From assembly GCA_902778285.1 (NCBI GenBank), contig CACYXC010000020.1, forward strand, positions 1 through 50,753: DNA of 50,753 bases, written 5' to 3'. The notes under the pieces are model-generated. The model was given only the letters and a program-made list of their open reading frames with translations, did no database searches and was not told where the DNA came from. Every line of letters begins with the position of its first letter. The stretch's first letter is position 1. Made by a program: the position numbers and the translations under genes. This DNA comes from Oscillospiraceae bacterium. GTDB taxonomy: Bacteria > Bacillota > Clostridia > Oscillospirales > Oscillospiraceae. Shown piece after piece: positions 1,631 to 50,753 of this stretch.

Positions 1631-1768
1631 AAACGGATTGCCACGCCAGTGTGCGCGCTGGCTCGCAATGACGGAACTCTGGTTTTGACGTTCTCATGAA
1701 CCTCGTACCAGGCCAAAACCTGTCATTGCGAACCAGTGACCGATGTCACTGGTGTGGCAATCCGTTTC
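1631..1768. repeat. Palindromic intergenic repeat, family A, copy 1
   Basis: The two ends are inverted copies of each other (ACGGATTGCCACGCCAGTG at the left, complement of CACTGGTGTGGCAATCCGT at the right). Each arm contains its own inner palindrome, CCAGTG..CACTGG type. A second copy lies at 38222-38361 with the arm types exchanged, i.e. inverted. It separates two convergent genes and may act as a bidirectional terminator or be a REP/MITE-like element. Similar sequences are, from memory, common in Oscillospiraceae genomes. Confidence 0.8.
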
Positions 1769-1804
1769 TCTATTCGTTGTCTCCTAAGCGCTAAGCGCTT
1801 TATG

Positions 1805-18627: not shown

Positions 18628-18847
18628 GGGGAGACCGCTTTCCGGTCTCCCCTCAAGCTGTCGACAGGAAGTCGACAGCTTGAGGAGCGAAAAACGGAAC
18701 TGTACAAACAGTTCCGTTTTTCGCGTAGATTGGGCGTGAAGAGGGGCATACCCTCCCCTCTTCACAATCACCCCATGCCTGTCCAAGCTTGTCCGCGCAA
18801 TTATTTCGCAGCCTTCGGGGGAAACCGCTTTCCGGTCTCCCCCTTTT
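18628..18847 (+). repeat. Terminator-flanked hairpin element, family C, copy 1
   Basis: Hairpin GGGGAGACCG..CGGTCTCCCC (18628-18652) is repeated, with one change, at 18817-18843, where it is followed by TTTT. Between them is a 164-bp core. It consists of TCAAGCTGTCGAC / GTCGACAGCTTGA (18653-18683), a 16-bp stem GCGAAAAACGGAACTG / CAGTTCCGTTTTTCGC, a stem GTGAAGAGGGG / CCCCTCTTCAC, and a CCCCATGCC tail. It lies after the ABC ATPase gene. Other copies are at 24424, 32202 (inverted), 43373 and 50624. Confidence 0.85.
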
Positions 18848-24423: not shown

Positions 24424-24634
24424 GGCGGGGCAGTGTCTGCCCCGCCTCAAGCAGTCGACAAACTGTCGACTGCATAAGCAGCGAAAAAGGGAACTTCTTG
24501 AAAAGTTCCCCTTTTCGCATGGATTGAACGTGAAGAGGGGCATACCCTCCCCTCTTCACAATCTCCCCATGCGTCTCCAGCCTTGTCCGCACGGATTTGA
24601 CTGCAGTCTGAGGCGGGGCCTTTTCTGCCCCGCC
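24424..24634 (+). repeat. Terminator-flanked hairpin element, family C, copy 2
   Basis: Flanking hairpins GGCGGGGCAG..CTGCCCCGCC (24424-24446) and GGCGGGGC..GCCCCGCC (24612-24634) share stems but differ in the loop. The core has TCAAGCAGTCGAC / GTCGACTGCATAA, the stem GCGAAAA..TTTTCGC, the same GTGAAGAGGGG / CCCCTCTTCAC stem as copy 1, CCCCATGCG, and the end GACTGCAGTCTGA. It lies after the rhomboid-like gene (minus) and before tRNA-Pro. Confidence 0.82.
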
Positions 24635-25554: not shown

Positions 25555-26364
25555 TCATGGCTTTTCTGTAACTTCTTCGGCGATCCCGGCAGTTTCTCCG
25601 CCCCCGGCGGGCACGCCGTCCCCTTTCGAGTAACCGTACTGCCCGCGGAAGCTGTCATCCCGCATGTAGAAGCGGTCGTCGCCCTTCCAGCCGGCGGCTA
25701 CTGCCTGCATGTCCGGGTCGAAGATATAGTCCGCGCCGTCGATGCGGATCTCCACCCAGCCGTGCGGACGGTCGGGCGGGCGGGTCTGCCCCTCCTCCGC
25801 CTGTCCGTAGACCGTGCCGCTGTAAGCCCTCGCGTCGTAGCCGATGCAGCGGGCCAGCAGGCAGAAGGCCGCGGCGAAATTGTAGCAGTTGCCCTTGCGC
25901 TCGGTGAACATGGTCAGGGCTTCTTTATTCTCCCAGCCGGTCTCGCCCGGCTCGTAGGAGCTGCGACGCAGATAGCCGAAGTTCTCGGAGACATAGCAAT
26001 ACAGCGCGTGGAGCTTTTCCTCGTCCGTCATGCTCTCGTCGGTCTGCTCTTCCACAATTGTGTACAGCAGCTCGTCAAGCTCCGGATCACCGCTGTGATA
26101 GCGCCCGTCAGGCGTCGGCTCCGGCGTAGGCACGGGCGTTGGCTCCGGCGTAGGCACGGGGCTGGGCTTCGAGGTCGGGGCGGGCGTCGGCTCAGGCGTA
26201 GGCACGGGCGTTGGCGCAGAAGTCTCCGCCGGTGCGGGCGTCGGCACGAGGAATCGTGCCGCGCCGAGCTTTTCCGCCAGCAGCAGTCCGCCGAGCGTCA
26301 GCAGCAGAAGCAGCAGGATCGTCAGCTGGACCGGATGCCGCCGTCTTCTGTGCGGTCGGTTCAT
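25555..26364 (-). CDS. Membrane-anchored transglutaminase-like domain protein
   Basis: 269 residues. An N-terminal membrane anchor (about 13-32) is followed by a proline/threonine-rich spacer of PTPEPTPAPT-type repeats (about 42-85) and a transglutaminase-like domain. The catalytic triad is plausible: Cys in ERKGNCYNF, His in PHGWVEI, Asp in FDPDM. It probably acts outside the cell on peptides or wall material. The start codon overlaps the stop of the upstream lipoprotein gene (ATGA), so the two are coupled. Confidence 0.82.
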   Translation of the reverse strand: MNRPHRRRRHPVQLTILLLLLLTLGGLLLAEKLGAARFLVPTPAPAETSAPTPVPTPEPTPAPTSKPSPVPTPEPTPVPTPEPTPDGRYHSGDPELDELLYTIVEEQTDESMTDEEKLHALYCYVSENFGYLRRSSYEPGETGWENKEALTMFTERKGNCYNFAAAFCLLARCIGYDARAYSGTVYGQAEEGQTRPPDRPHGWVEIRIDGADYIFDPDMQAVAAGWKGDDRFYMRDDSFRGQYGYSKGDGVPAGGGETAGIAEEVTEKP

Positions 26365-32201: not shown

Positions 32202-32395
32202 GACAGCGCCTGAGCGAAGTGCTCAGGCGCTGTCAGACTGTAGACAAACCTATACAGAGCAAGTCGGACTTGCATGGGGAGAGCGCGAGAGGGGATTGGG
32301 TATTCCCTCTCGCGTTTGATATTCTCAAAAATTCTCAAGGTGTCGACACTTTGTCGACACCTTGACAGCGCCTGAGCGAAGTGCTCAGGCGCTGT
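32202..32395 (-). repeat. Terminator-flanked hairpin element, family C, copy 3 (inverted)
   Basis: The 32-base hairpin GACAGCGCCTGAGC..GCTCAGGCGCTGT is present identically at 32202-32233 and 32364-32395. The 130-bp core between them, read on the minus strand, has CAAGGTGTCGAC / GTCGACACCTTG, a shortened AT-rich segment, CGCGAGAGGG / CCCCTCTCGCG, CCCCATGC and the end TTTGTCTACAGTCTG. It lies between two convergent genes. Confidence 0.9.
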
Positions 32396-38126: not shown

Positions 38127-38221
38127 CGCGTTCTCTCCCTTCTCTTGACAGCATTATACCCTCCAGGTAATTAAGAACCAAGAGGGTATTGGATTAAGAT
38201 TTGATTAAGCAAAAGATAAGG

Positions 38222-38361
38222 AACGGATTGCCACACCAGTGACGTCGGTCACTGGTTCGCAATGACAAACATTACGATTGATGCGGCGTCCATTCTCTGT
38301 TGATAATCTGAAGCCTGTCATTGCGAAGCCAGTGCGCACACTGGCTGTGGCAATCCGTTTC
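38222..38361. repeat. Palindromic intergenic repeat, family A, copy 2
   Basis: Ends ACGGATTGCCACACCAGTG and, inverted, GGCTGTGGCAATCCGT; inner palindromes CCAGTGACGTCGGTCACTGG and CCAGTGCGCACACTGG. Matches 1631-1768 with the arms exchanged. Separates the response regulator from the GIY-YIG gene. Confidence 0.8.
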
Positions 38362-42533: not shown

Positions 42534-43367
42534 ATGCAGCCGGAAAAATGGCGGGAGACCGTGGACCCCTTTTCTCTCCCCTATCACAGCTTTCAGCCTC
42601 TGGAGATCCTCGGCTATCCGCACGCGGGCAACGACGTGTTCCATATCCGCGGCCTGTACCGCGGGGAGGAGGTGCGCGCTTACGTCAAAGCGGCGCGGCA
42701 GCCCGGCGCGGCCATCGCAAGCGAAGCCGCGATCCTGCGTCAGCTCTCCGGCCCGGTCTTTCCCCTCGTGATCGACGAGGGGGACAGCGATCCGCCTTTT
42801 TCCGTGACGCTGGCGATGCCGGGAGAACGCCTGTCTGTCCTGCTGGGCGGGAATGCGGGCCTTGCCTCTCTCGCCTTTTTGCCGGAATACGGCGCGGCGC
42901 TGGCGAAGCTGCACCGCCTCAGTCTTCCGGTCGGGAATCAGGCAGACCGCCGCTTTTTTCATCCGCCGGCGGAGGAACTGCTCGCAAAGAGCGATCTGCT
43001 GTATTTGAAGGATTTTTTCGCCCATCCCCCGACCGCGTCACAGCGCTGCTTTTGTCACGGCGATTTCCATTACGCAAACCTGCTCTGGCGGGACGGGCAC
43101 ATCAGCGCCATACTGGATTTCGAGCTGGCCGGTTACGGGGACCGGGACTTCGACATCGCCTGGGCCATGTTTCTGCGTCCGGGGCAGCGCTTTTTCAAGA
43201 CCGAAGACGAGCGGCAGGCTTTTCTGCGGGGTTATGCCGAACACGGGGAGTATGACCCGGACGCCGTCCGCTTTTATACGGCGCAGTGCTATGTGTATTT
43301 CCTGCAGTTTTCGGGGAATGACCCGGAGTACTGCGGCTATGTGCGCGACTGGCTGAAAAGCCTGTAA
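42534..43367 (+). CDS. Aminoglycoside/choline kinase-family phosphotransferase (APH)
   Basis: 277 residues with the APH/kinase-like fold. An N-terminal lobe with a lysine segment (EVRAYVKAARQPG) is followed by the catalytic loop CHGDFHYANLLW and the metal-binding ILDFELAGYGDRDFDIAWA. It phosphorylates a small molecule with ATP; the substrate (sugar, choline, amino sugar or antibiotic) cannot be told. Close to tadA (five-base gap). A family C element follows the gene five bases later. Confidence 0.88.
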   Translation: MQPEKWRETVDPFSLPYHSFQPLEILGYPHAGNDVFHIRGLYRGEEVRAYVKAARQPGAAIASEAAILRQLSGPVFPLVIDEGDSDPPFSVTLAMPGERLSVLLGGNAGLASLAFLPEYGAALAKLHRLSLPVGNQADRRFFHPPAEELLAKSDLLYLKDFFAHPPTASQRCFCHGDFHYANLLWRDGHISAILDFELAGYGDRDFDIAWAMFLRPGQRFFKTEDERQAFLRGYAEHGEYDPDAVRFYTAQCYVYFLQFSGNDPEYCGYVRDWLKSL

Positions 43368-43372
43368 ATGAA

Positions 43373-43569
43373 AAAGGAGCATCCGAAAGGATGCTCCTTT
43401 CAAGCTGTCGACAAAGTGTCGACAGCTTGAAAATCAAAAATGAGAACTCCCCAAAAAGTTCTCATTTTTGAGTATATCAATCGCGAGAGGGAATACCCCA
43501 TGCGTGTCAAACTTCGGCAGCATGGGTTTGTCTACAGTCTGAAAGGAGCATCCGAAAGGATGCTCCTTT
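43373..43569 (+). repeat. Terminator-flanked hairpin element, family C, copy 4 (best preserved)
   Basis: The 28-base hairpin AAAGGAGCATCC GAAA GGATGCTCCTTT is present identically at 43373-43400 and 43542-43569; only the second is followed by a longer T run. The 141-bp core contains CAAGCTGTCGAC / GTCGACAGCTTG, TCAAAAATGAGAACT / AGTTCTCATTTTTGA, TCGCGAGAGGG, CCCATGC / GCATGGG and the end TTTGTCTACAGTCTG. About 97 bases are identical to the copy at 50655. Confidence 0.93.
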
Positions 43570-43612
43570 TTGCTGTCTAAGCGCTAAAAGCTTGGCGCTA
43601 ACAGCTGTTTTC

Positions 43613-44167
43613 TCAGGCCTTGACCGTGCCGTCCGGGTTGAAGAGGGGCAGGTGGCCCAGGACGATGATGTCGTCGCGGTTGATGGCGTCGCCCTCGGCG
43701 AGTACGGCCATGCGCCCGGCCACGATGCCGCCGGCCTGTCTGACCAGCTCCTCGGTGGCGCGCAGGGACTCGCCGGTGGAGATCACGTCGTCCAGGATCA
43801 GGATGCGCTTGCCCTTGATCTTCTCCGCGTCGGCGGTGTCGATGACGAGCTTCTGCACGCTCATGGTGGTGATGGATTTCACATTGACCTCGAACACGCC
43901 GGACATGTAGGCCTTGGGGCCCTTGCGGGCCAGGAAGTACTCGTCAGCGCCGCTCTGGCGGGCCATCTCGTACAGCAGGGGGATGGACTTTGCCTCGGGG
44001 GCGAGCAGGTAATCGTACTCGGGAGCGCGCTTGAGAAGCTCCGCCGCGCAGTGCACGGTCAGCTCCACATCGCCGAACATGACGAAGGCGCCGATGTACA
44101 GATCGTCGGAGACCTTGCACAGGGGCAGATTGCGCTTCAGGCCGGCAATGTCCATTTCGTATGTCAT
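43613..44167 (-). CDS. Purine-type phosphoribosyltransferase
   Basis: 184 residues, type I phosphoribosyltransferase fold. The PRPP-binding motif is RILILDDVISTGES, preceded by DYLLAPEAKSIPLLYEMAR, as in adenine and xanthine phosphoribosyltransferases. It salvages a base with PRPP. The specific base cannot be assigned from the hood region by eye. The ATG at 44167 follows GGAGGAA. Monocistronic. Confidence 0.87.
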   Translation of the reverse strand: MTYEMDIAGLKRNLPLCKVSDDLYIGAFVMFGDVELTVHCAAELLKRAPEYDYLLAPEAKSIPLLYEMARQSGADEYFLARKGPKAYMSGVFEVNVKSITTMSVQKLVIDTADAEKIKGKRILILDDVISTGESLRATEELVRQAGGIVAGRMAVLAEGDAINRDDIIVLGHLPLFNPDGTVKA

Positions 44168-47253: not shown

Positions 47254-47326
47254 TGCTCCAGCGGGGATTCGAACCCCGGACACCCTGCTTAAAAGGCAGG
47301 TGCTCTGCCTACTGAGCTACTGGGGC
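47254..47326 (-). tRNA. tRNA-Lys (TTT)
   Basis: Acceptor GCCCCAG with CTGGAGC, anticodon stem CCTGC/GCAGG with loop CTTTTAA (anticodon TTT), T arm CGGGGTTCGAATCCCCG, discriminator A. The acceptor has a C-A mismatch at the third pair and CCA is not encoded in the usual form (CCC follows). Fold otherwise normal. Confidence 0.88.
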
Positions 47327-47467
47327 AAGCGTCGGACTGGGCTTCCTATCCATTCGCTTCCGGCTGAAGCCGAAAGCTCAGTCAGTCCGCCAGTCCTCCT
47401 TTTCAAACGCAAACCCGCTTCGCTGAGCTTTGCGTTTGCTAAACGAAAGAAGCGTTTTGCCGTCTCC

Positions 47468-47587
47468 CCAAATCGGAGCCCAGCGCAGTGGGTCCGATTT
47501 GGAAAGGAAGAAGGAAGCTGCGGATATAAAGCTTTCGCGGCTCTTTCGGAAACCGCGGAAGCGGTATGAAGCAGCTTTCTTCTGACG
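47468..47587 (-). repeat. Two-hairpin 3' module, family D, after tRNA-Gln
   Basis: Starts CGTCAGAAG three bases past the tRNA-Gln CCA on the minus strand. Hairpin II is CCAAATCGGA / TCCGATTTGG with inner pairs. Likely terminator. Best matched by copies at 41941, 47841 and 48059. Confidence 0.78.
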
Positions 47588-47590
47588 CCG

Positions 47591-47664
47591 TGGCTGGGAT
47601 GGCGGGACTCGAACCCACTATATCGGAGTCAAAGTCCGGTGTGTTACCATTACACTACATCCCA
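47591..47664 (-). tRNA. tRNA-Gln (TTG)
   Basis: Acceptor TGGGATG/CATCCCA, anticodon loop CTTTGAC (anticodon TTG), T arm GTGGGTTCGAGTCCCGC, discriminator G, encoded CCA. The outermost anticodon-stem pair is a C-A mismatch. Confidence 0.92.
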
Positions 47665-47679
47665 TGATTTCTGTGGAAA

Positions 47680-47700
47680 GAGGCCGGCACTGCCGGCCTC
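47680..47700 (-). terminator. Terminator after tRNA-His
   Basis: GAGGCCGGCA / TGCCGGCCTC, a near-perfect stem nine bases past the tRNA-His CCA, followed by TTTCC on the minus strand. Confidence 0.65.
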
Positions 47701-47709
47701 CCTCGTTTG

Positions 47710-47786
47710 TGGGGTGGGATATGGGGCTCGAACCCACGACACCCGGAACCACAATCCGGTGCTCTGCCAACTGAGCTAATCCCACC
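47710..47786 (-). tRNA. tRNA-His (GTG)
   Basis: Acceptor GTGGGAT/ATCCCAC with the extra 5' G (-1) opposite C73, anticodon loop TTGTGGT (anticodon GTG), T arm GTGGGTTCGAGCCCCAT, encoded CCA. Confidence 0.94.
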
Positions 47787-47840
47787 ATGTCGTCCGAACA
47801 GGCTTAAAAAACCTGCCGCGAACCGTATATGCGATTCATA

Positions 47841-47953
47841 CCAAATCGAAGCCCCGCGAGGCGGGTCCGATTTGGAGAAGGAAGAAGGAGCCTGCGAATA
47901 TGAAGCTTTCACCGCCCCGGCGGAAGCGGAATGCAGCAGGCTCCTTCTGACGC
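47841..47953 (-). repeat. Two-hairpin 3' module, family D, after tRNA-Arg
   Basis: Begins at the base after the tRNA-Arg CCA (minus strand GCGTCAGAAGG). Hairpin I AGAAGGAGCCTGC / GCAGGCTCCTTCT; hairpin II CCAAATCG..GCCCC / GGGTCCGATTTGG. Terminator candidate. Confidence 0.82.
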
Positions 47954-48030
47954 TGGCACGCCAAGAGGGATTCGAACCCCCGACCTACTGCTTAGAAGGC
48001 AGTTGCTCTATCCTGCTGAGCTATTGGCGC
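47954..48030 (-). tRNA. tRNA-Arg (TCT)
   Basis: Acceptor GCGCCAA/TTGGCGT, anticodon stem ACTGC/GCAGT with loop CTTCTAA (anticodon TCT), T arm GGGGGTTCGAATCCCTC, discriminator G, encoded CCA. Confidence 0.94.
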
Positions 48031-48058
48031 ATATAGATCCGCGCCAGCTCTCGCTCTG

Positions 48059-48165
48059 CCAAAGGAAAGCCGAAGGCTTTGCTTTGGAGAAGGAGGAAGG
48101 AGCTTGCGGATACGGAGCTTTCGCCGCCCCGGCGGAAGCGGAGGGAAGCAAGCTTCTTCCGACGA
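48059..48165 (-). repeat. Two-hairpin 3' module, family D, after tRNA-Gly
   Basis: Begins directly at the tRNA-Gly CCA end (minus strand TCGTCGGAAGAAGC). Hairpin II CCAAAG..AAAGCC / GGCTTTGCTTTGG. Same plan as the other copies with compensating base changes. Terminator candidate. Confidence 0.8.
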
Positions 48166-48239
48166 TGGAGCGGGTGATGGGAATCGAACCCACGTATCCA
48201 GCTTGGAAGGCTGGTGTTCTACCATTGAACTACACCCGC
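48166..48239 (-). tRNA. tRNA-Gly (TCC)
   Basis: Acceptor GCGGGTG/CACCCGC, anticodon stem CCAGC/GCTGG with loop CTTCCAA (anticodon TCC), T arm GTGGGTTCGATTCCCAT, discriminator T, encoded CCA. First of the five-tRNA array on the minus strand. Confidence 0.94.
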
Positions 48240-48331
48240 GCGTCCGTTCCCTTAAAGCTTAAAGATAATACCATAGGCTGACGCAAAATGTCAACCGCTT
48301 TTTCCGAAATTCCTAAAGAATTTGATTTGAC

Positions 48332-48360
48332 TTGACTTTATCAATGCAGCGTGTTAGTAT
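48332..48360 (+). promoter_or_regulatory. Promoter of the riboswitch-lysA unit
   Basis: -35 TTGACT at 48332-48337, 17-base spacer, -10 TAGTAT at 48355-48360, immediately before the riboswitch aptamer. Confidence 0.7.
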
Positions 48361-48364
48361 GTCA

Positions 48365-48591
48365 GCGGTCGAAAGAGGTGCGGTGTCCATCAGTAGCCTC
48401 CGGCAGGGCAGGCAGCCGCCGGAGGGGAAAGGGGCCACCGCCGAAGCGTCGGTCCCCGTGCCTGCGGGGCCGCCGCTGGGGTCATGGAGAAGATCCATGG
48501 CACTGTCACGGAGGGTAAGACGTGGAGCGCTGTCGACTGCCGCAGGGTATCCCTGCTCATGGCCGCTCCACGGGAGCGGTTTTTGTTTTTT
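48365..48591 (+). promoter_or_regulatory. Lysine riboswitch (L box)
   Basis: The aptamer spans 48365-48540, closed by the P1 stem GCGGTCGA / TCGACTGC. Conserved L-box blocks are in order: AGAGGTGCG, CATCAGTAG, GAGGGGAAAGG, GCCGAAGC, CGCTGGGGTC and CACTGTCACGG. The terminator at 48563-48591 follows, then lysA. Lysine binding should favour termination and switch off diaminopimelate decarboxylase, the last step of lysine synthesis. Confidence 0.93.
48563..48591 (+). terminator. Riboswitch expression-platform terminator
   Basis: CCGCTCC, loop ACG.., GGAGCGG, then TTTTTGTTTTTT. It ends 16 bases before the lysA ATG. Confidence 0.88.
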
Positions 48592-50623: not shown

Positions 50624-50753
50624 AAGGCGAGACCGCAAAATGCGGTCTCGCCTTAAGCTGTCGACAAAGTGTCGACAGCTTGAAAATCAAAAATGAGAAC
50701 TCCCCAAAAAGTTCTCATTTTTGAGTATATCAATCGCGAGAGGGAATAACCAA
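50624..50753 (+). repeat. Terminator-flanked hairpin element, family C, copy 5 (cut by window end)
   Basis: Local hairpin AAGGCGAGACCGCA / TGCGGTCTCGCCTT (50624-50654), then a core that is identical for about 97 bases to that of the 43373 copy. The second flanking hairpin is expected beyond the window. Confidence 0.88.

What the first reader, a model, noticed from the sequence alone, without database searches (positions are those of the whole stretch)
43373..43569. A family of hairpin elements sandwiched between duplicated, locus-specific terminators
Five related elements (18628, 24424, 32202 inverted, 43373, 50624) share a 130-165 bp core: a GTCGAC-centred stem at one end, further stems inside, and a TTTGTCTACAGTCTGA-like end in the better preserved copies. 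In the four complete copies the core lies between two copies of a terminator-like hairpin. These flanking hairpins differ completely between loci but agree within a locus: identical over 28 bases at 43373 and 32 bases at 32202, nearly so at 18628, and with the same stem but another loop at 24424. The simplest reading is an element that inserts at intrinsic terminators and duplicates the whole hairpin, leaving the gene with a working terminator. Seen directly: the cores and the flanking repeats. Inferred: mobility and terminator targeting. I know of no described element with this exact behaviour.
Basis: partly seen in the sequence, partly recalled or inferred. Interest (0 to 1): 0.88.

Follow-up and report, generated by a model that had tools for sequence, protein, structure and literature searches.

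The report
Mobile element that duplicates terminator hairpins
A short mobile DNA element, repeated many times in this gut-type bacterium, lands on the hairpins at gene ends and copies the whole hairpin to its other side, so an insertion leaves a hairpin on each side of it.

Summary
The repeats are non-autonomous elements (MITEs, mostly 113-165 bp) with 15-bp terminal inverted repeats CARRCTGTMGACAAA. They share these ends with a 1.6-kb insertion sequence whose transposase is IS1182-family. The genome has 139 right-end matches, against 0 for the reversed pattern. I parsed 104; 89 are testable, and 74 of these are flanked by a direct repeat of 22-44 nt that is usually a stem-loop running A...T from foot to foot. 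Orthologous loci in relatives have one hairpin (4 of 4 compact two-flank sites), and insertions nested in older copies double a hairpin that is otherwise single. Sites lie at gene ends: 41 convergent, 24 tandem, 0 divergent, 9 other of 74. Related IS1182 elements in complete records also duplicate hairpins, 8 of 20 regions. The closest described element, IS1272, targets such structures but deletes them; whole-hairpin duplication was drawn there only as a hypothetical pathway (PMC5678879). Terminator function and the cutting step remain inferred.

The parts
43373..43400 (+). left copy of the duplicated target hairpin (28 nt)
   Evidence: AAAGGAGCATCCGAAAGGATGCTCCTTT, identical to 43542-43569; 12 contiguous pairs
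43401..43541 (+). MITE copy (141 nt), ends CAAGCTGTCGACAAA ... TTTGTCTACAGTCTG
   Evidence: alignment A1
43542..43569 (+). right copy of the duplicated target hairpin
   Evidence: keeps the T-rich downstream side
43401..43429 (+). left-end hairpin made of the terminal inverted repeat and its inverse (GTCGAC stem)
   Evidence: consensus fold with both-side changes at 2 of its 9 pairs; itself used as a target in L055 and L071
43434..43471 (+). internal A/T-flanked hairpin of the MITE (approximate bounds)
   Evidence: 13-pair consensus stem, 5 pairs with both-side changes; used as a target in L072
32203..32233 (-). target hairpin copy of the inverted element
   Evidence: 31 nt, identical to 32365-32395
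32234..32364 (-). MITE copy in inverted orientation, internally deleted
32365..32395 (-). second target hairpin copy of the inverted element
18628..18652 (+). left hairpin copy of an older element
18654..18800 (+). older MITE copy whose right terminal repeat is lost (right bound approximate)
18817..18843 (+). right hairpin copy of the older element, slightly diverged
24424..24447 (+). left hairpin copy: same stem, different loop
24448..24610 (+). older MITE copy
24611..24634 (+). right hairpin copy
50624..50654 (+). left hairpin copy of a MITE cut by the end of the window
50655..50753 (+). MITE copy truncated by the end of the window

Best explanation
It is a family of miniature inverted-repeat transposable elements mobilised by an IS1182-family DDE transposase. 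Shown from sequence: the element sits between two copies of a locus-specific stem-loop; the copy pair behaves as a target-site duplication (A-stem-loop-T, 22-44 nt); the compact orthologous sites found without the element have one hairpin; the sites are mostly gene 3' ends; and an IS with the same ends, in part with the same flanking duplications, exists in this genome and in relatives. [quoted passage not shown] gap repair then copies the whole hairpin. The stagger is therefore set by the hairpin, not by a fixed distance. Also inferred: because the right copy keeps the T-rich side and the left copy keeps the A-rich side, a usable terminator remains for each direction, so insertions are mild and each leaves a fresh target hairpin.
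For: Copy number: 139 right-end matches with up to 2 mismatches, 0 for the reversed pattern. Duplications: 74 of 104 parsed right ends have an upstream copy of the right flank; 58 of 74 pairs identical; first base A in 74 of 74 right copies, last base T in 68 of 74 as parsed. Palindromic: 58 of 74 with 10 or more contiguous foot pairs, against 72 of 200,000 random windows. Empty sites: the L009, L015, L057 and L078 loci in G051 have both flanks and one hairpin, of diverged sequence; the L034 locus in G033, one flank 96% identical, has the same hairpin once with one loop change. Nested insertion L072, and repeated hits on one hairpin in L045. Partner: IS left ends at five contig ends continuing in relatives into a transposase, NF033551 444.9 bits against a cut-off of 270; five IS right ends at or near contig ends; two left/right pairs carry identical hairpins, a third the same stem. 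Context: 41 convergent, 24 tandem, 0 divergent, 9 other of 74, against 5/25/5 gene pairs in the window. Eight of 20 regions around IS1182-family genes in other complete records carry hairpin duplications.
Against: Terminator function is not measured, and the terminator scan called none at 43300-43650, probably because the T run pairs into the stem. One copy sits inside a coding sequence with only a 6-nt repeat, AGTTCT (L043). Full-length ISs often carry different hairpins on their two sides: L147, L149, L154 (3 of 3 two-ended copies shown from same-genus genomes), and L308 and L312 in complete plasmids; in this genome two of five IS left ends and two of five right ends found no IS partner. ISEfa7 (L300, L303, L304: one insertion), with the same terminal repeat, shows no duplication, and the IS1182 member ISPse1 is listed with a 4-bp repeat (PMC3281130). 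No transposase gene is assembled in this genome: 0 matches in G000. Cruciform versus single-strand hairpin recognition is untested.
Confidence: 0.92

Rival explanations
1. IS1272-type stem-loop replacement: the element replaces a hairpin, and two pre-existing hairpins happen to flank it.
For: Same IS family and the same taste for terminator hairpins (PMC4923244, PMC5678879). Several full-length ISs have unlike hairpins on either side.
Against: IS1272 leaves no duplication, whereas here 74 of 89 testable copies have direct repeats specific to the locus, 58 of 74 identical. Compact orthologous sites have one hairpin, 4 of 4.
Confidence: 0.03
2. Ordinary DDE transposition with a long variable stagger at A...T sites; the hairpin is only a hot spot because terminators are AT-flanked, accessible DNA.
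For: A strong A at the first duplicated base on both strands and a purine before it. One insertion in a coding sequence with a 6-nt repeat.
Against: Duplication length (22-44 nt) follows hairpin length, with the ends on paired feet in most copies; a hot spot alone would not make the stagger match the stem.
Confidence: 0.1
3. Post-insertion gene conversion or hairpin copying made the two flanks alike, rather than a target-site duplication.
For: Palindromes are prone to template switching (general knowledge); a few pairs share the stem but not the loop (window 24424, L052, and the C62/C64 pair).
Against: 58 of 74 pairs are identical including the loop, and relatives show one hairpin where the copy has two.
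Confidence: 0.03
4. The elements are not mobile but are a structural repeat maintained at gene ends (REP or BIME-like).
For: Highly structured (fold of 43366-43580 with its flanks, z -14.5), at gene ends.
Against: Defined terminal inverted repeats shared with an IS, locus-specific flanking repeats, nested insertions and empty sites.
Confidence: 0.01

Closest known systems
IS1272 and TnSha1 (IS1182 family, staphylococci; PMC5678879, PMC4923244)
   Same: IS1182-family transposase, 16-bp terminal repeats, target is a stem-loop without sequence consensus, several targets are terminators or lie just downstream of genes; a tandem copy of the left end was reported there, and one is seen here in L157.
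   Different: IS1272 deletes or replaces the stem-loop and leaves no duplication; here the whole stem-loop is duplicated. Whole-loop duplication is drawn in PMC5678879 Fig. 13 only as hypothetical pathway b. A Staphylococcus haemolyticus plasmid match listed is 25.5% identical over 44% of our transposase; I did not confirm that it is IS1272.
IS1182-family members that target palindromes (Siguier and colleagues, as cited in PMC4923244 and PMC5678879; ISfinder's long variable direct repeats for this family are recalled, from no call)
   Same: Family and taste for palindromes.
   Different: I could not read those sources; a non-autonomous family at this copy number at gene-end hairpins was not found in my searches.
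ISMac2-related MITEs of Methanosarcina acetivorans (table in PMC3852290, passages seen)
   Same: Short MITEs (160 and 169 bp) assigned to an IS1182-family partner.
   Different: Direct repeats of 4 and 0 bp are listed (reading the table's last column as direct repeats), not hairpins.
REP elements with RAYT transposases, and REP- or attC-targeting ISs (recalled, from no call)
   Same: Hairpins as substrate or target, intergenic.
   Different: Different enzyme class or no such duplication, as recalled; here the partner is a DDE transposase.

Membership tests
IS1182 family (partner IS) | transposase scores above the curated family cut-off | tested here: met
   NF033551 444.9 bits, cut-off 270, profile 4-487 of 488, for the full copy L147; the truncated L103 copy alone scores 217, below the cut-off
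IS1182 family (partner IS) | DDE transposase domain | tested here: met
   Pfam DDE_Tnp_1_6, DUF772, DDE_Tnp_1
IS1182 family (partner IS) | about 1.3-2 kb with one ORF between terminal inverted repeats (size range recalled) | tested here: met
   L147: 1639 bp, ORF of 514 codons, ends TCAGCCTGTAGACAAA / TTTGTCTACGGTCTGA
MITE | short, non-coding, many copies, terminal inverted repeats shared with an autonomous element | tested here: met
   113-165 nt in most copies, a few longer; 139 end matches, which include IS ends; TIR shared with the IS in this genome and relatives
MITE | target-site duplication and empty sites | tested here: met
   74 of 89 testable copies; 4 of 4 compact two-flank orthologous sites have one hairpin
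MITE | mobilised in trans by the partner transposase | not testable with these tools
   needs a transposition assay
IS1272-type stem-loop replacement | no target duplication; hairpin lost on insertion | tested here: not met
   hairpin duplicated
Terminator-targeting element | insertion sites at gene 3' ends | tested here: met
   41 convergent, 24 tandem, 0 divergent, 1 in an ORF, 8 with a neighbour unknown, of 74; 62 of 69 within 60 bp of a stop (own gene calls)
Terminator-targeting element | target hairpins terminate transcription | tested here: inconclusive
   T- or A-rich side in 64 of 73, but the scanner called none at 43300-43650; no RNA data

The most novel reading that the evidence does not exclude
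A DDE transposase that reads DNA shape: it cuts the two 5' feet of an extruded cruciform, so the target duplication is exactly the hairpin whatever its length. It thereby inserts into terminators without removing them and regenerates its own target, allowing repeated hits on one terminator and very high copy number. This is pathway b of the IS1272 model, here in a natural family and, judging from complete records, in a wider IS1182 subgroup across Firmicutes and Fusobacteria.
Probability: 0.6. Interest if true: 0.78.

Novelty: new variant of a known kind. Interest (0 to 1): 0.64.

Why it matters
In the two papers I could read, hairpin targeting by an IS1182 element rests on a few dozen staphylococcal insertions that remove the hairpin. 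Here one genome offers over 70 precisely bounded examples of the opposite outcome, with stem lengths and sequences varied by nature. That makes structure-directed DDE transposition directly testable, and suggests how a parasite can fill a compact genome's gene ends with little harm. It also warns that terminator predictions, and assemblies, can break at these elements.

Tried and rejected
Unrelated-repeat or REP reading: dropped once terminal repeats, empty sites and nested insertions were seen. Element-borne flanking hairpins: rejected because the flanks differ from locus to locus. Loop-specific mutation of the duplicated hairpins: 5 loop and 13 stem mismatches, Fisher p 0.09, not significant. 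First gene calling by longest ORF put 33 of 74 sites inside ORFs, probably antisense ORFs of high-GC DNA; repeated with a codon-usage caller, which leaves 1. Both are my own rough callers. No Rfam family reached its gathering score on the element in window, L011 or L147. No solved structure by sequence up to E 1. The viral-contig pattern scan was empty. Exact element boundary: TSD = A-hairpin-T with element CAAG...TCTG fits L031, L057, L023 and L014, where the last base is not T and both copies agree; the window 24424 copy does not fit (T against C). Where the target itself has A...T the two readings cannot be told apart. The 74 direct repeats were found by looking for an upstream copy of the right flank, so direct repetition is selected for; palindromicity is not.

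Counts behind '89 testable': 104 distinct right ends minus 13 at contig or locus ends (L007, L020, L028, L036, L047, L053, L069 minus strand e32, L070, L077, L080, L084, L085, L086) and 2 beside N gaps (L029, L066). Of the other 15 without a detected copy, 4 have the same stem with indel, loop change or partial loss (L016 minus strand, L052, L079, window 24424). L043 has a 6-nt repeat in a CDS. L062 has unlike hairpins. L055 (two ends), L045 (first), L071 and the outer L072 element are nested or truncated. L013, L050, L088 and L090 are degenerate or spurious end matches. This sorting was by eye. About 35 of the 139 end matches were not parsed; ends with the same first 40 nt of right flank were counted once.

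Full report
OBSERVATION. The five elements and their flanking hairpins are present as described. At 43373 the 28-nt stem-loop AAAGGAGCATCCGAAAGGATGCTCCTTT occurs on both sides of a 141-nt core. The ends of the core are imperfect terminal inverted repeats, CAAGCTGTCGACAAA and CAGACTGTAGACAAA (reverse complement of TTTGTCTACAGTCTG).

GENOME-WIDE. The genome in which the window lies (G000, 2.43 Mb, 76 contigs) has 139 matches to TTTGTCTACAGTCTGA with up to two mismatches and none to the reversed pattern. The list shows 92 exact and 8 one-mismatch places; I read the DNA round all 92 and round 5 of the 8 (window). Of 104 distinct right ends found there, 74 have a direct copy of the right flank upstream. 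Leaving out 13 at contig or locus ends and 2 beside N gaps, 89 are testable: 74 with a direct repeat, 4 more with the same stem but an indel, loop change or partial loss, and 11 without (listed in Tried and rejected). The duplications are 22-44 nt (commonest length 28, in 12 of 74); 58 of 74 pairs are identical. The first base is A in 74 of 74 right copies and the last is T in 68 of 74 as parsed; L026 was mis-parsed (really T), and L083 has a decayed left end. Contiguous pairing from the feet reaches 10 or more in 58 of 74, against 72 of 200,000 random windows of the same lengths in the window. Pairing often continues outside the duplicated part: 61 of 74 have at least one more pair. The cut is therefore at an A-T pair low in the stem, not always at the last possible pair. 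Cut contexts on the two strands mirror each other: a purine before the cut in 65 of 73 left cuts, A after it in 73 of 73 left and 69 of 73 right (L083 dropped, L026 corrected).

PLACE. With a codon-usage ORF caller of my own, the 74 sites fall into 41 convergent, 24 tandem and 0 divergent gene pairs, 1 within an ORF and 8 with one neighbour unknown; 62 of 69 lie within 60 bp of a stop codon that faces them, median 19 bp. The window's own 36 called genes give 5 convergent, 25 tandem and 5 divergent pairs. An A- or T-rich side is present at 64 of 73 sites. A simple terminator scan of 43300-43650 found nothing, probably because the T run is paired into the stem; terminator function is an inference. 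There is no clear orientation preference at tandem sites (13 against 11).

BEFORE INSERTION. In stretches of two same-genus genomes (G051, G033) and the other relative loci then held, 7 of the 74 sites had both flanks on one stretch within 3.5 kb. Four had a compact gap of 73-85 bp, and all four hold one hairpin and no element: the L009, L015, L057 and L078 loci, all in G051. Their hairpins have diverged from the duplicated ones (L009 keeps the outer stem), so they show one hairpin at the place, not the same letters. The other three had larger changes between the flanks: L021, L073, and L040, whose match L155 carries a relative of the IS1182 transposase. At the L034 locus one flank is 96% identical in G033 and runs straight into the same hairpin once, with one loop change; at L035 the G051 hairpin shares the stem. 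For the window copy, the right-hand gene was found in relatives. Of the 29 loci listed, 14 show 130 bp past the gene's 3' end in the right orientation; 11 of these have one perfect hairpin of 8 pairs or more there, 1 has two and 2 have none (5 loci too near a contig start, 9 in the other orientation and 1 of the other flank were left out). The left neighbour is not conserved at most of them, so this is weaker than the two-flank sites. Nested insertions give the same answer inside this genome: in L072 a younger element sits in the internal hairpin of an older one and that hairpin is now doubled; L055 and L071 have insertions at the GTCGAC hairpin, with the left side truncated or off the contig. 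In L045, three element right ends lie in a row, each followed by a copy of the same hairpin, so a duplicated hairpin is hit again.

PARTNER IS. Five contig ends carry another sequence inside the same terminal repeat. In relatives this continues into a transposase. A full copy in G062 (L147) is 1639 bp; its 505-residue product scores 444.9 bits to the IS1182 family model (cut-off 270) and has DDE domains. Five places carry the IS right end, four at contig starts and one about 150 nt from a contig end. Two left/right pairs have identical flanking hairpins (C14/C16 and C70/C61) and a third has the same stem with another loop (C62/C64); two left and two right ends found no IS partner, one of these right ends (C31) matching the hairpin of a MITE-bearing contig end (C23) when both are read on one strand. 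The transposase interior is not assembled in this genome: 0 matches in G000. Besides the terminal repeats, MITE and IS both have hairpins just inside their ends, with different sequences.

BREADTH. The MITE query finds matches in 38 of 102 genus genomes, this one included. Of 29 loci from other genomes examined (L267-L295), 14 show flanking direct repeats next to stems of 8 or more pairs by one script. The 34 stretches bear titles of mostly Oscillospiraceae or Ruminococcaceae metagenome assemblies, many from gut or rumen; L099 (G051) and L116 (uncultured Clostridiales RUG498) give the same match on contigs of the same length. In 20 regions of the plasmid collection around IS1182-family genes analysed together, the same stem-loop lies on both sides in 8 (Acetoanaerobium L296, Macrococcoides L299, Brevibacillus L301, Enterococcus casseliflavus L306, Peribacillus pB L307, Cytobacillus L309, Sutcliffiella L313, Cetobacterium L314). 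Unlike hairpins lie on the two sides in 2 (L308, L312). The other 10 show no duplication of this kind, or their ends were not found reliably (L298, L300, L302-L305, L310, L311, L315, L316; L300, L303 and L304 are the same ISEfa7 insertion). One more fetched region, L297, was not analysed there. These regions were chosen from the best and spread rows of 1774 matching records, not at random.

KNOWN WORK. PMC5678879 (abstract, passages and part 1 of 2 of the Discussion read) reports that IS1272, an IS1182-family element, replaces stem-loops without duplication, and proposes three pathways; [quoted passage not shown] PMC4923244 (passages) reports IS1272/TnSha1 targeting hairpins, including mapped terminators, with partial deletion. 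Both cite Siguier and colleagues for palindrome targeting in the family. PMC3852290 (passages) lists two IS1182-associated MITEs with 4- and 0-bp repeats, and PMC3281130 (passages) an IS1182 member with a 4-bp repeat, so hairpin duplication is not general in the family. Searches of the paper library listed no report of a hairpin-duplicating MITE; of the listed papers I opened only these and PMC8868234 (passages), and ISfinder and most subscription papers were not searchable.

MECHANISM. The stagger equals the stem-loop whatever its length, which fits joining of the element's 3' ends to the 5' feet of a cruciform and gap repair. This step is inferred. The main unexplained result is the frequency of unlike hairpins around full-length ISs (L147, L149, L154, L308, L312) and one MITE (L062); recombination between copies, misassembly, or two-target events would do it. 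The element with its flanks is highly structured (43366-43580, fold z -14.5), and two of its internal hairpins keep pairing through changes on both sides at 7 of 22 pairs.

VERDICT. The new part is the outcome (duplication rather than loss of the hairpin), its scale, and the precise bounds. The family is known.

Noticed in passing
window 1721-1769 and 38219-38267: Another interspersed repeat, TGTCATTGCGAACCAGTGAC..., in inverted orientation (49 nt, 96%); a similar sequence stands in the tail of L147.
   Followed up: no
window 24424, L052, contig ends C62/C64: Duplicated hairpins with the same stem but different loops. Overall the loop excess of mismatches is not significant, but these cases change most of the loop.
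   Followed up: partly
L117 3726-3795 (same element as in L102): A 70-bp element made of two IS left ends in inverted orientation, with unlike hairpins on its two sides.
   Followed up: partly
L157 about 1393-1425: Tandem duplication of the terminal repeat of a related IS1182 element, like the 25-bp left-end duplication reported for IS1272.
   Followed up: no
L012 and L040 loci versus L099 and L111: The partner IS sits next to the orthologous flank in other genomes, which suggests independent hits on the same gene ends.
   Followed up: partly
window 50753 and other contig ends of G000: Contigs end inside MITE or IS copies; hairpin identity could guide scaffolding.
   Followed up: no
window 47254-48540: tRNA genes beside a lysine riboswitch.
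   Followed up: no
window 26099-26243: 12-bp GC-rich tandem repeat.
   Followed up: no
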